From: Verrucomicrobiota bacterium
GTDB lineage: Bacteria; Verrucomicrobiota; Verrucomicrobiia; Chthoniobacterales; UBA10450
Reading direction: 5' to 3'
Length of the DNA: 33,281 bases
Assembly: GCA_003219465.1 (NCBI GenBank)
Contig: QHOX01000118.1
Coordinates: forward strand, 1-33,281
The notes beneath the pieces are model-generated. The model saw only the letters and a program-made list of their open reading frames with translations. It did not search any database and was not told the origin of the DNA. Each line of letters starts with the position of its first letter. The stretch's first letter is position 1. The position numbers and the translations under genes are program-made. Of this stretch, positions 23,024 to 28,287 are shown piece after piece.

Positions 23024-24005
23024 TCAGTACCGCTCAGCCGCGAAGACCGATTCGGGATCTGAGCCGGAAACTTTGCCGACTCCGATCCACCCAATTCGGC
23101 TGACCAGGGCGCCGATCAAAAACGAGAGCGCTGCCAAAGGAATGAAACCAAAGAAACGGAGAACGAGCGCGAGCGGACCGTTCAACACTAATGCGAATCT
23201 GCCAGCCAGTACCATGTTCGTGAATCGCGCGATCGGCTGCGCCGTGTTTATCGATACTGAGCCAAACGAGGAGCGCGAGCTCAACCGTGGCAGCGTAAAA
23301 TCCGAGAGAGTTGAGCGCCGCGATTCGGTGTCCCAGCAATTCCAGCACGGCGGCGGCGGACCCCAGGCCGGCAGTTCCAAAATGAATTGGGAGCAATGTG
23401 CGATGTAAAAACCACGCGGGAATCGCCGTTGCTCCGATGAGCACACCAGTATAAGTCGCGAGCAAAGTTCCAAGAATTGCCGCACCAGAAATGAAAATCC
23501 CAGCAGCCACGCGCAGAAGTTGACCCAGCGCGCCTGGAATAATCTCATGCGCGTGCAATTCGAGCGCGATCGAACCTGAAACCACGCACGTGCCAAATGC
23601 CGTCAAAATCCACGCGCCCATCGACATGGCGGAGCGATGTTTGAAAACGCGCAGCATGTTGAGGAAGAGATGCGGCCGGCCGAGATCCATAATCAGAAGA
23701 ATTGGCGAAAGAACCGCGCCGGCCACGGCCGCACTCCACATCGCTGCGCGTGCAAGATCGACCTGATGAAACAAGACCGCGCCGAAAGCGATCACTGCCG
23801 ACATACCGCCGATTCCGCCAAAGAAAAAGTAGAGCGGAACTTCCCACGTCCAGACCGGCGGTTTAACCACCGGCTGGCCGTAATAGCCGGGTTTTCGCGG
23901 TATCGGCCCACCGACAACGTCGACGCCGCGACCGGGGACGACTCCCTCCTGCCAGGCTTTCTCGCGCAGTTGTTCAAGCCGCTGTTCTGATGCAGGGGTG
24001 TTCAT
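23024..24005 (-). pseudogene. nrfD: NrfD/PsrC-type membrane subunit of formate dehydrogenase, frameshifted near the 3' end
   Basis: The frame from 24005 (MNTPASEQRLEQLREKAWQE) encodes conserved GYYGQPVVKPPVWTWEVPLY, then several transmembrane helices and IMDLGRPHLFLNMLRVFKHR, typical of NrfD-like quinone-interacting subunits. After about 252 codons the frame loses meaning (HGTGWQIRISVERSARAR). A one-base shift at the AAA run (23247-23249) restores a natural NrfD end: NTAQPIARFTNMVLAGRFAL to SDPESVFAAERY at 23024, about 326 aa in total. The start ATG overlaps the preceding stop codon by one base (TGATG), indicating coupling with the iron-sulphur subunit. Confidence 0.78.
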
Positions 24006-24877
24006 CAAGAGGAAAATGCGAATGCCAGCAGCGTCACAATGAGCGAGGCGATTGCAGTCGCGAAGGCCGCAGTCCACGCAGATTTCAAATAAATTGTCGG
24101 CACCTGCGGTTTTGGCGGAAGCCCGTAAGCTTCGGGTTCGCCCAGGATCAGGAAGAAAGCGTGAATGCCACGCACGGAAGTTTCGGTCGGGTCATAAAGT
24201 TGTGCGTCATCGTAACCGTGCTGGTGCAGTTCATTGACGCGCTGCGTTGCTCGTGCACGCAAATCGTCAAGGCGACCGAACACGATCGATTCGGTCGGAC
24301 AAACCTTCGCGCACGCCGGAACGAGTCCGCTCTTTTGTCGATCGTAACAAAACGTGCATTTGAATGCGCCGCCGGCATCGGGTAACGGCGCAGGGCGGCG
24401 ATCGATCACGCCGAAAGGACACGAGACGACACAGTATCCGCATCCATTACACACATCGTCCTGCGTGAAAACGGTGCCGGTTTCCGTGCGAACAATCGAC
24501 CCCGTCGGACAGGCTTCAAGGCAGCCGGCTTCTTCGCAATGTTTACAGACGTCCGAGAGAAAAACCCAGCGAAACGGATCGGCTTCAGGGCCGTTGCCTA
24601 ACGAGTGAGAGCCGACGATCTGGCCTCCTTTTTGTCGATCCTGTTCGAGAAACAAAACGTGCCGCCACGTGGAAGCGCCGAGATGGCCAGTGTTGTCGTA
24701 GGAATTTCCCGTCCACGTGAAGCCGTCGTCCGGAACTTCATTCCATTCTTTGCATGCGACCTCGCACGCTTTACAACCGATGCAGACTGTCGGGTCAGTG
24801 AAGAAACCGACTTCGACGTGATCCCGCACAAACGTGTGCCGGCGCTGGTTCGTGCTCTGTGTGCCCTCGCCGATCAT
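24005..24877 (-). CDS. fdhB: Formate dehydrogenase iron-sulphur (beta) subunit
   Basis: The 290-aa electron-transfer subunit has four Cys motifs for [4Fe-4S] clusters: CIGCKACEVACKEWN (C32-C42), CKHCEEAGCLEACP, CNGCGYCVVSCPFG and CTFCYDRQKSGLVPACAKVC. A C-terminal transmembrane helix (AWTAAFATAIASLIVTLLAF) anchors it, as in FdnH. It passes electrons from the catalytic subunit to the NrfD-type membrane subunit. The start at 24877 is chosen because CCAGGTCTT precedes the ATG; upstream frame to 24928 begins with TTG and is less likely. It lies 94 bp downstream of the catalytic subunit gene. Confidence 0.92.
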   Translation of the reverse strand: MIGEGTQSTNQRRHTFVRDHVEVGFFTDPTVCIGCKACEVACKEWNEVPDDGFTWTGNSYDNTGHLGASTWRHVLFLEQDRQKGGQIVGSHSLGNGPEADPFRWVFLSDVCKHCEEAGCLEACPTGSIVRTETGTVFTQDDVCNGCGYCVVSCPFGVIDRRPAPLPDAGGAFKCTFCYDRQKSGLVPACAKVCPTESIVFGRLDDLRARATQRVNELHQHGYDDAQLYDPTETSVRGIHAFFLILGEPEAYGLPPKPQVPTIYLKSAWTAAFATAIASLIVTLLAFAFSS

Positions 24878-24971
24878 AAGACCTGGTGTGGACGGGACGC
24901 TGGTCCGTCTGCGACTTGCGTTCCACAATTTTGGTGCACCCGACGGACGCGCTCGACCACTCCTGGCGCCC

Positions 24972-27900
24972 TCATTCTTTTCCTTCCATCGCGAGACCGC
25001 CGCCGCGCGTAGTCACGCTGCGCCGCGGTTCCTCGGGATGTAGAACGGGCGGGCCTGTTTGGGGCGCGTATTTGTTTAGGAAGTCGGCGAACGCGCGGCC
25101 ACCGGGCAATCGGCCCGGCACAATGTTGCAGGTGCACGCTTTCGCTTCCATGATCGTCACATTCGGTTCGCCGGAGATCGAGAGAAGATCATTGGCGGCG
25201 CCGCCGCGTACGAGACCGGCTGTTCCATAGTGATAGGGCAATGCAACCTGGTGTACTGTTCTTCCATTGAGCTGCAATGGTCGAATCCGGCGACTAACGA
25301 GCGCGCGCGCTTCAATCGCTGCACGTAAAGTAACAATGCAAACATGATCGCCGTTGCGAATCTTGAGCTCACGTGCAAGCTCCAGCGAGATTTCGGCGAA
25401 CATTTCCGGCTGCAATTCCGAGAGGTGACTCAAAAAGCGCGACATGCCGCCGGCAGTATGATGTTCGGTCAGCCGATAGGTGGTCAGCACAAATGGAAAT
25501 CTCGAATCACCCGGCGGCGCAAACCGATTGTCTGGACGCGGGAACCAATGCTCCGGCGGATTGGTGTCGCGCGAATAAAGTTCATTCGATACGGGCGACT
25601 CAAGCGGTTCGTAATGCGTCGGGAACGGGCCGTCCTTCAAGCCTTTTGGCACGTAGATCCAGCCCAAGCCGTCCTCGTGCAGGATAAACGGCGCATCACC
25701 TGGAATTGCATCGAGACCTTCAGCGCCTACCTCTGGCTCATAGTCCGGAGCTTTTCCTTGTACAAAGCCGGCAACGTCGATACCGGTCCATTTTTCCGAG
25801 TCCCACCACACAAGTTTTTTCCGTTCGCTCCATGGACGGCCGTCCGGCCGCGCACTGGCGCGATTGTAAATGATTCTACGATCGCTCGGCCACGCGAAGC
25901 CCCAGCCGTGACCGAGGTAATCTCTCGATTTCCGTGCGTTTGCCTTGTTTACGCCATCGCGACCGAACACGCCGGAGTAAATCCAAGCGCCGCATGCAGT
26001 GGATCCGTCAGCTTTCAATTCCGCGAAACCGTCCACCTGCGGGCCGTGATGCGTATTGCCATCGCGATCTACACCGAAAACGACGCCCTCGCTCCCACCG
26101 CGCTCAGCGCCCGCGGCTACAGGTTGCGTGTACCAGCCGTTGATCTCGGCGAGCACAGCTTCCATTTGCGGCTCGCCCAGTTTGTCCTCCGGATACCACC
26201 AATCGAGCGCGCGCAACGGTTCATCGAGCGGATTGTTTGATGTTTTCGCTTTGGCGATTAGACGCAAAGCCAATCGGTGCATGAACCACGCATCCGAGCG
26301 CGCGTCATCTGGCGGGTCCACAGCCTTCTCGCGCCACTGCAAGAGTCTCTGCGTGTTTGTGAATGCGCCTTCCTTTTCGGCGTGACCGGCCGCGGGGAAA
26401 AAGAAAACTTCAGTTTCGATCTCCTCCGACTTCAGCTCGCCACGCTCGATTTCAGGTGATTCGCGCCAGAAATTTGCAGACTCAATTTCGACCATCTCAC
26501 GCACGACTAACCATTTCAGTTTCGAGAGCGCTGTTCGCTGCAGCCGCGAGTTGGGCGCGCCGACAGCAGGATTTTGCCCCATCAAAAACATGCCCTCCAT
26601 TTTTCCATCGAGCATGTCGTAGAGGTACTCGAAAAAGGAATGGTTGCCCGTGAGTTTGGGGAGCCAGCCGTAGCCGAAATCATTTTCTGCGGTCGCGCGC
26701 TTACCGTAGTACGCCTTGAGTGTACTCACGATGTATTTCGGGTAGTTCGACCAGAGGCCAGTTTTTTTCGTGTAGTTATCGAGATATTGCTGAAGCGTGT
26801 CATCGCCTTTGCGCGGCATCGTGAGATAGCCGGGCAAAATGTCGTACAGCGTCGGAATATCGGTCGAACCTTGGATCGAAGCGTGACCGCGCAACGCAAG
26901 AATCCCGCCGCCGGGCCGGCCAATATTTCCAAGCAGCAATTGCAAAATCGCGGCCGCGCGAATGATCTGCACGCCTTTCGAATGCTGAGTCCAACCGACG
27001 GCGTAGCAGACCGCAGCGGTCCTCTCCGGACCGGATGCAGCAGCGAGCGCATGCGCCACCTTGTGAAAAAGGTCCGGCGGAATGCCGCAGATTTTCTCGA
27101 CCATCTCCGGTGTGTAGCGAGAGAAGTGCCGTTTCAATTTCTGAAAGACGGATTGCGGATCTTGCAATGTGAGATCGCGTTGCGGGCGGCTCAGATCGCC
27201 GCCTTTGTAAAGCCAACTGTCGCCTTCGTAAGCACGCTTCTCTGCGTTCCAGCCGGAGAAATAGCCGTCTCCGTTATCTTCAGGGTCGCGGTATTCGTCG
27301 GACAAAATGCACGAGGCATTCGTGTAATGAACGACGTAATCGCGAAAGAAGAGCTCATATTCGATCAAGTGGTTGATGAGTCCGCCGAGAAAAACAATGT
27401 CTGTGCCGGCACGGATCGGCACCCAGATATCGGCCAGCGCGCTGGTGCGCGAAAATCTTGGATCCACATGGATGATTGTGGCGCCGCGTTGCTTTGCTCT
27501 CATCACCCAGCGAAAACCGACTGGATGCGCCTCGGCCATCGATGAGCCTTCGATCAAAATGCAATCGGCGTTCGCGAGATCTTGTTGCGCGGTCGTAGCT
27601 CCGCCCCGGCCAAAAGAGGTGCCCAGACCGGGCACCGTGCTGCTATGTCATATCCGGGCCTGGTTGGATATGCACACCATGCCTAGGCCTCCGGTAAAAA
27701 GCTTTTTGATCAGATAATTTTCTTCGTTGTCGAGCGTAGCGCCGCCGAGATGGCAGATCGCAGTCGTGTGATTGATGGTCTGATTGTCGGTCTTGTGCAC
27801 GAATGTGCGTCTGCGCGATTCCCAAACCCGGTCCGCCACCATGTCCATGGCGCGGTCGAGCGACATCTCCTGCCATTCCTTCGCATGTGGCGCGCGATAT

Positions 27901-28214
27901 TTCATTTTAGTTTCGCGTCGCGAATGCGTCAGCAGTTGATACGATGCCGCGCCTTTTGGGCAAAGATTTCCCTGGCTGATCGGTGATTCCGGATCGCCTT
28001 CGATCGAAATCAGTTTTCCGTCTTTGTGATAAATCAGCTGACCACAACCAACACCGCAGTACGGACAGACCGATCGCGCAATCTGTGCGTCATCAATGCG
28101 CGCACGCAGCATGCGCGTTTTTTCGGACATCGATTCGAACCCGGTTCCGTCTTTGCCTTCTCGAATTTGGCGCAGGAGCGGCCATTTAGAAAGCAAAGCG
28201 CTTAGAGAGGCCAT
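24972..28214 (-). CDS. fdhA: Formate dehydrogenase catalytic (alpha) subunit, selenocysteine-containing
   Basis: One continuous frame of about 1080 aa is interrupted by a single TGA (27648-27650) that I read as selenocysteine, residue 189. Upstream: CPYCGVGCG (C50, C53, C57) and NLCPKG (C85) bind a [4Fe-4S] cluster. At the active site the sequence reads SNQARI-U-HSSTVPGLG, aligning with Sec196-His197 of E. coli FdnG (NQARV-U-HGPTV). Downstream: TSFGRGGATT, MAEAHPVGFRWVM, VDPRFSRTSALADI (bis-MGD binding), and a C-terminal MGD domain ending at 24972. It oxidises formate to CO2. No twin-arginine signal is seen at the N-terminus. The start may be the ATG at 28214 or a TTG at 28235. It would be mis-annotated as two ORFs without Sec decoding. 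Confidence 0.9.
27618..27636 (-). promoter_or_regulatory. Bacterial SECIS element (Sec insertion hairpin) for the formate dehydrogenase
   Basis: On the mRNA, 11 nt after the UGA, GGUGCCC-GGUCU-GGGCACC forms a perfect 7-bp stem with a 5-nt loop. The loop is GGUCU, as in E. coli fdhF; the distance from UGA to GGUCU is 18 nt, the same as in fdhF by my recollection of that sequence. The bulged U of the E. coli element is absent (a G-C pair instead). It lies inside the coding sequence and would bind SelB. Confidence 0.85.
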
Positions 28215-28287
28215 GGCAGAATTCTGCTGTGTCAATCTTTAGGAATACACGAAGTCACCGTCCATCGCACGAACACATTTAGAAGAA

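What the first reader, a model, noticed from the sequence alone, without database searches (positions are those of the whole stretch)
24972..28214. Formate dehydrogenase is a selenoprotein with an in-frame UGA and a bSECIS hairpin
Seen: a single TGA (27648-27650) divides a continuous formate dehydrogenase frame exactly at the active-site position (QARI-UGA-HSST). 11 nt later a perfect 7-bp hairpin has loop GGUCU, and UGA-to-GGUCU is 18 nt. Known: E. coli FdnG/FdhF have Sec at this site and the fdhF SECIS uses a GGUCU apical loop at the same spacing. Inferred: the UGA is decoded as Sec, so this lineage must have SelA/SelB/SelC/SelD. This would be split or called a pseudogene by default annotation. 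The lack of the bulged U seen in E. coli may mean a differently tuned SelB.
Basis: partly seen in the sequence, partly recalled or inferred. Interest (0 to 1): 0.85.

Follow-up and report, generated by a model that had tools for sequence, protein, structure and literature searches.

The report
Selenocysteine formate dehydrogenase in soil Verrucomicrobia
This soil bacterium very probably reads one stop codon in its formate-oxidising enzyme as the rare amino acid selenocysteine, and its genome carries the genes needed to do so; this is a well-known trick found in a little-studied group, and the codon just before the stop looks as if it is part of the signal.

Summary
Observation and main interpretation hold. 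One TGA (27648-27650, minus strand) interrupts an open formate dehydrogenase frame at the active-site position; a 7-bp hairpin with GGUCU loop starts 11 nt later. The MAG (Chthoniobacterales) has tRNA-Sec(UCA), selD, selA and selB in one cluster. TGA stands in 26 of 27 loci read from its relatives' search, own included, and 72 of 75 from named records. The three TGC genes are Streptomyces that lack the GGUCU loop and selA. Over 44 distinct sequences of the clade one hairpin pair, joining two synonymous sites, is G-C/U, C-G or U-A/G. Synonymous variation is lowest around the UGA. Two more selenoproteins, SelW/Rdx-like and SelD, are encoded. The bulged-U difference is real and clade-wide (U17 paired in 43 of 44 here, 3 of 21 in Pseudomonadota and others); its meaning for SelB is untested. 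Unexpected: codon -1 is AUA in 52 of 53 Ile cases, against 3% elsewhere in these genes. A real selenoprotein of a known kind, plus one lead on upstream context.

The parts
24972..28214 (-). fdhA, formate dehydrogenase catalytic subunit (1080 aa) with Sec at residue 189 in the reading from ATG 28212-28214
   Evidence: NCBIfam NF041513 1522.6 bits (cut-off 1400) and TIGR01553 979.7 bits (cut-off 814.2); best solved relatives 1kqf (nitrate-inducible FDH) and chains named selenocysteine-containing FDH alpha
27648..27650 (-). Sec codon UGA
   Evidence: aligned with the site that solved Sec-FDH chains show as X or C; TGA in 26 of 27 loci (own included) and 72 of 75 loci (partly the same genomes)
27618..27636 (-). 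bSECIS hairpin, 7 bp, apical loop GGUCU at 27625-27629
   Evidence: covariation
27651..27653 (-). codon -1, AUA (rare Ile codon), nucleotide-conserved upstream context of the UGA
24005..24928 (-). fdhB, iron-sulfur subunit
   Evidence: TIGR01582 180.5 bits, below its cut-off 334.7; Fer4 domains
23034..24077 (-). fdhC, NrfD-type membrane subunit
   Evidence: PF03916 NrfD 57 bits over cut-off 25.8

Best explanation
fdhA is a selenoprotein gene. The ribosome reaches UGA at the metal-ligand position; SelB with GTP and Sec-tRNA(Sec) binds the GGUCU hairpin 18 nt downstream and inserts Sec instead of terminating (inferred from the E. coli system, recalled). FdhA works with an iron-sulfur subunit and an NrfD-type membrane subunit as a membrane-bound formate dehydrogenase, probably facing the cytoplasm because no twin-arginine signal is seen (by eye). 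Shown: frame, UGA, hairpin, conservation, covariation of one pair, complete sel cluster, FdhD chaperone gene. Inferred: actual Sec insertion, enzyme activity and direction.
For: Frame and hairpin. tRNA-Sec with anticodon TCA, 66.4 bits over gathering 47 (the second match over gathering, 51 bits, is a tRNA-Leu by ARAGORN). selA 476 bits, selB 308 bits, selD 362 bits, each over its cut-off, all within C80:4049-8535 with the tRNA. FdhD present. TGA in 26 of 27 and 72 of 75 loci. By my reading, 38 of the 44 genomes (own included) with a piece of this orthologue at 66% identity or more have selA, against 14 of the other 73. The 3 TGC homologues form one clade inside the Sec genes, lack the GGUCU loop and most of the upper stem, and show no selA, whereas 33 of 37 TGA genomes do (32 over cut-off). 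Hairpin pair between two synonymous sites, 44 distinct TGA sequences: GC 21, GU 3, CG 15, UG 1, UA 3, GG 1. Lowest synonymous variation of the gene.
Against: The hairpin's folding energy is unremarkable for its composition. Only 1 of the 7 pairs shows two-sided change, 3 never vary, and two of the five covariation measures do not exceed shuffles. 6 of 44 genomes with the orthologue show no selA; one of them, G074, is 99% complete and has only a 304-aa TGA-bearing piece. 4 of 37 TGA genomes outside show no selA. One relative (L042) reads TCA at the site, near a contig end. fdhA and the sel cluster are on different contigs of a MAG with 5.5% contamination. No protein or translation evidence was available.
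Confidence: 0.97

Rival explanations
1. The TGA is a real stop: a decaying pseudogene or two separate proteins.
For: Table 11 splits the gene into two ORFs; G074 carries only a short TGA-bearing piece and no selA.
Against: TGA recurs at one exact position in genes from six phyla (phyla as given) while the frame stays open on both sides; one hairpin pair covaries; full Sec machinery.
Confidence: 0.01
2. UGA is decoded by a standard tRNA (for example Trp) or by a genetic-code change, not as Sec.
For: None found.
Against: A UCA tRNA-Sec with SelA, SelB and SelD is present; TGA apparently also ends fdhA itself; the alternative state in homologues is Cys, without selA.
Confidence: 0.01
3. Assembly or sequencing error of TGC/TGT.
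For: Draft MAG, 413 contigs.
Against: The same codon stands in many other assemblies, including records titled as strains such as Conexibacter arvalis DSM 23288 and Solirubrobacter deserti.
Confidence: 0.005
4. The AUA at codon -1 is only shared ancestry or codon bias, not part of the signal.
For: All sequences belong to one FDH superfamily; in Pseudomonadota the 4 of 10 pattern hits that I judge by eye to be FDH genes all have AUC; 8 of 88 actinobacterial TGA matches have AUC.
Against: 20 other conserved Ile columns of the same genes are nearly free of AUA (at most 4 of 43) while codon -1 is AUA in 52 of 53; the third bases of the Ala and Arg codons just upstream are A or U in only 16 and 31 of 88, against 79 of 88 at -1.
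Confidence: 0.3

Closest known systems
E. coli fdhF / fdnG SECIS (SelB-dependent bacterial SECIS)
   Same: Sec UGA in formate dehydrogenase; hairpin just downstream; GGUCU loop, 18 nt from the UGA as in fdhF (fdhF spacing recalled; the SECIS string ggttgcaggtctgcacc seen in a passage of PMC3834832)
   Different: 7 uninterrupted base pairs; U17 pairs with A or G instead of being bulged (bulge in E. coli recalled; U17 faces C in 18 of 21 distant homologues)
E. coli formate dehydrogenase N (FdnGHI, PDB 1kqf) and selenocysteine-containing FdhAB
   Same: Catalytic subunit aligns over residues 41-1031 with 1kqf; the Sec site aligns in the two Sec-FDH chains shown
   Different: No twin-arginine signal seen by eye; membrane subunit is NrfD-like, not cytochrome b (recalled for FdnI)
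Actinobacterial formate dehydrogenase NF041513
   Same: Passes the curated cut-off (1522.6 against 1400 bits); about 51-57% identity to Solirubrobacterales, Streptomyces and related genes
   Different: Verrucomicrobial genes form their own clade in a quick tree

Membership tests
Bacterial SECIS (consensus model as printed in PMC13188914, passages read) | 3-9 nt apical loop and 4-16 bp upper stem | tested here: met
   5-nt loop, 7 bp
Bacterial SECIS (consensus model as printed in PMC13188914, passages read) | at least one G in the first two loop positions | tested here: met
   GGUCU
Bacterial SECIS (consensus model as printed in PMC13188914, passages read) | 16-37 nt between UGA and loop | tested here: met
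   18 nt
Bacterial SECIS (consensus model as printed in PMC13188914, passages read) | MFE at most -7.5 kcal/mol | tested here: met
   -14.8 kcal/mol for 45 nt of the window
E. coli-type fdhF SECIS | bulged U at position 17 (recalled) | tested here: not met
   U17 pairs with A31 here; over 44 distinct sequences of the clade UA 32, UG 11, UU 1
Formate dehydrogenase alpha subunit, Sec-containing | profile match over curated cut-off | tested here: met
   TIGR01553 and NF041513 over cut-off
Formate dehydrogenase alpha subunit, Sec-containing | Sec at the metal-ligand position followed by His | tested here: met
   U-H aligned with the Sec site of solved chains; that this residue binds the metal is recalled
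Formate dehydrogenase alpha subunit, Sec-containing | formate oxidation or CO2 reduction activity | not testable with these tools
   no assay
Sec-decoding trait | selA, selB, tRNA-Sec and selD in the genome | tested here: met
Sec-decoding trait | Sec actually inserted | not testable with these tools
   no protein data

The most novel reading that the evidence does not exclude
The Sec insertion signal of this FDH clade extends upstream of the UGA: a rare AUA codon at position -1 (elsewhere AUU or GUU; A or U at -1 in 79 of 88 actinobacterial TGA matches) is selected for Sec decoding, for example by slowing the ribosome as it meets the SECIS hairpin or by weakening release-factor action. The SelW-like gene (GUU in all 17 Val cases of 18 genes) and SelD (GGG in 12 of 18) also show non-random codons there.
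Probability: 0.5. Interest if true: 0.55.

Novelty: new member of a known kind. Interest (0 to 1): 0.33.

Why it matters
It shows Sec use with three selenoprotein families in a soil group known here mostly from MAGs, where default gene calling cuts FdhA and would cut SelD and the SelW-like protein at the UGA. Sec and Cys versions with matching presence or absence of loop and selA make a natural experiment. The codon -1 pattern is directly testable in E. coli Sec reporters and, if real, would help selenoprotein prediction and expression.

Tried and rejected
Folding energy as evidence for the hairpin: rejected, z = 0.22. Rfam on the window: 0 matches at gathering score. An extended helix upstream of the UGA: RNAalifold on 84 columns predicts only 6 pairs of the same hairpin. 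An unknown selenoprotein to explain the 14 genomes with selA and no fdhA orthologue: stretches of up to 20 kb around selA from 13 of them were scanned with 7 others and own C80; the only conserved TGA frames that I could read as genes were SelD and a SelW/Rdx-like protein (found in 11 of the 13); the other clusters (25 largest shown) were judged by eye to be shadow frames. Rest of those genomes not scanned. A general rule of AUA before Sec UGA: rejected for Pseudomonadota. A rule 'never G at -1': rejected, SelD has mostly GGG and one FDH has AUG. Literature, listings with titles and abstract starts only: selenocysteine with Verrucomicrobia and formate dehydrogenase, 9 papers; selenocysteine with Chthoniobacter, 2 papers; no title there pointed to this finding, and none of them was opened. 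The string Verrucomicrob occurs 0 times in the main texts of PMC13188914, PMC5029168, PMC12013277 and PMC5330540 (word search, passages seen). On upstream codon context: searches (listing; no paper), passages of PMC3834832 and PMC8704476: nothing on the codon before a bacterial Sec UGA seen, though older work is cited there that I could not read. Searches were listings, from which only the papers named here were opened. SelB residues at the RNA were not compared; only shows that SelB aligns with E. coli SelB over its length.

Full report
What is there. The minus-strand frame 28214-24972 encodes a formate dehydrogenase catalytic subunit interrupted by one TGA at 27650-27648, residue 189. Default calling gives two ORFs, 27648-28235 and 24972-27635. 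The protein passes NCBIfam NF041513 and TIGR01553. Its best solved relatives are 1kqf and chains named selenocysteine-containing FDH alpha subunit, and in the two alignments shown their Sec site (X or C) aligns with the UGA. Downstream follow an iron-sulfur subunit (24005-24928) and an NrfD-type membrane subunit (23034-24077).

The hairpin. GGUGCCC-GGUCU-GGGCACC begins 11 nt after the UGA, loop at 18 nt. It meets the four criteria of the bacterial SECIS model quoted in PMC13188914, with -14.8 kcal/mol for 45 nt. Energy alone says nothing (z = 0.22), so I tested evolution. In 17 full-length Chthoniobacterales genes (chosen by me from the 30 loci), 429 degenerate codon columns have an invariant amino acid. 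The 12-column window from codon -5 to +8 has the lowest synonymous variation of 418 windows (ratio to expectation 0.43), and the 16 lowest windows all lie within codons -9 to +34.

Covariation. On 35 sequences chosen by me (the window, two more loci, and 32 of the 75), 96.3% of cells pair and the covariation score 0.254 exceeds all 500 shuffles and all slid versions. The number of pairs with two-sided change (1) and the number of pair types do not exceed the shuffles, and three pairs never vary. Left out of that set were the TGC genes, Pseudomonadota, L134-L137, L155, L156, L045, L118, L129 and further verrucomicrobial loci. I therefore recounted without choosing: all 72 TGA loci of the near clade, 44 distinct 45-mers. 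Loops are GGUCU 41, AGUUU 2, GUUCU 1. Pair 4, joining the third bases of the Val and the second Gly codon, is GC 21, GU 3, CG 15, UG 1, UA 3, GG 1; pair 1 is broken in 6 of 44. In the 26 TGA loci of the far group (21 distinct; Pseudomonadota, Myxococcota, Acidobacteriota and three actinobacterial genes), U17 is unpaired in 18 of 21 and the outer pair is mostly absent. So the unbulged stem is a property of this clade and not of the window alone.

The machinery. The MAG (4.19 Mb, 413 contigs, 88.8% complete, 5.5% contaminated) has tRNA-Sec (UCA), selD, selA and selB at C80:4049-8535 and FdhD. In five relatives (G051, G052, G058, G064, G068) selA and fdhA lie on one contig, 4.1 to 5.0 kb apart, which speaks against a contamination artefact (my reading).

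Sec against Cys. Among 30 loci, 27 contain the site: 26 TGA, own included, and 1 TCA (L042, 145 bases from a contig end). Among 80 loci from named records 75 contain it: 72 TGA, 3 TGC; some of these are the same genomes as. The three TGC genes are Streptomyces, form one clade among Sec genes in a quick tree, read GGC or GGA instead of GGU in the loop, pair poorly in the upper stem, and their genomes show no selA (0 of 3), against 33 of 37 TGA genomes, 32 over the cut-off (40 of the 59 loci L104-L162 were given). Among 117 genomes, selA is found in 38 of 44 with a piece of this orthologue and in 14 of 73 without (my reading; pieces of 66% identity or more counted; the match list is cut at weak matches).

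Other selenoproteins. Upstream of the tRNA in C80 lies a 78-aa Rdx/SelW-like protein with CVVU (68.7 bits), and SelD carries Sec as CAGU. Their hairpins, found by eye and not tested against shuffles, have loops AGUUU at 21 nt (18 of 18 genes) and GUU at 33 nt (18 of 18 TGA genes). The SelD stem shows changes on both sides (position 5: GC 7, CG 9, UG 2; position 6: CG 7, AU 5, UG 3, GU 1, GC 1, AG 1; of 18), but position 4 is unpaired in 5 of 18, own genome included. The SelW stem hardly varies and its position 5 is a C-A mismatch in 8 of 18, own included. In the one relative with a Cys SelD (L177) only 3 of 9 pairs remain. One SelB must serve three loops that share a GU.

An unexpected point. 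In the alignment of 79 loci, codon -1 is AUA in 52 of 53 genes with Ile there, against 84 of 2585 other Ile codons of the same genes; in 20 other conserved Ile columns AUA never exceeds 4 of 43. With Val there (26 genes, among them 4 Streptomyces, 3 of those TGC) it is GUC 18, GUU 7, GUA 1 and never GUG, which is 680 of 1623 other Val codons. In 396 actinobacterial genomes a pattern gave 91 matches, 88 with TGA: AUA 59, AUU 13, AUC 8, GUU 7, AUG 1. The -1 base is A or U in 79 of 88, while the third bases of the Ala and Arg codons before it are A or U in 16 and 31 of 88; the 3 TGC matches read GUG, GUG and AUU. The 30 of the 91 matches that I read in context were all FDH-like; the other 61 were not read. 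Results against a universal rule: Pseudomonadota with Ile there have AUC (4 of 4 that I judge real among 10 pattern matches in 398 genomes), and SelD has GGG in 12 of 18. The sequences are related, so no formal probability is given. I regard selection at codon -1 as likely and its role in Sec insertion as plausible but unproved.

Verdict. The finding is correct as far as sequence can show: a conserved Sec formate dehydrogenase with a bSECIS and full machinery. PMC13188914 (passage) calls FdhA the most widely distributed selenoprotein family among bacteria, so the kind is well known. What I have not seen in the papers searched is the group, its set of three selenoproteins, and the codon -1 pattern.

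Noticed in passing
27651-27653 and relatives: Codon before the Sec UGA is AUA in 52 of 53 Ile cases although AUA is about 3% of the other Ile codons in these genes; A/U at -1 in 79 of 88 actinobacterial TGA matches.
   Followed up: partly
L022:3651-3884 (+), contig C80 of the same genome: SelW/Rdx-like 78-aa protein with CVVU; TGA and AGUUU loop in 18 of 18 genes read.
   Followed up: yes
L022:4221-5276 (+): SelD is itself a Sec protein with a hairpin whose loop lies 33 nt downstream; one relative (L177) has Cys and keeps 3 of 9 pairs.
   Followed up: yes
G074:C2:643294-644205: A TGA-bearing fdhA piece (query residues 1-304) in a 99% complete relative without selA match: possibly a remnant after loss of Sec decoding.
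   Followed up: no
G000:C357:3344-4204 and G000:C292:4653-5347: A second partial fdhA (83% identical C-terminal piece) and a second fdhD in two pieces in the same MAG: paralogue or a mixed strain.
   Followed up: no
L045 and L120: FDH SECIS loop variant AGUUU (Ser-Leu instead of Gly-Leu), the same loop as in the SelW-like gene.
   Followed up: no
L042, relative G029: TCA at the Sec position with an otherwise intact hairpin, 145 bases from a contig end: sequencing error or a true change.
   Followed up: no
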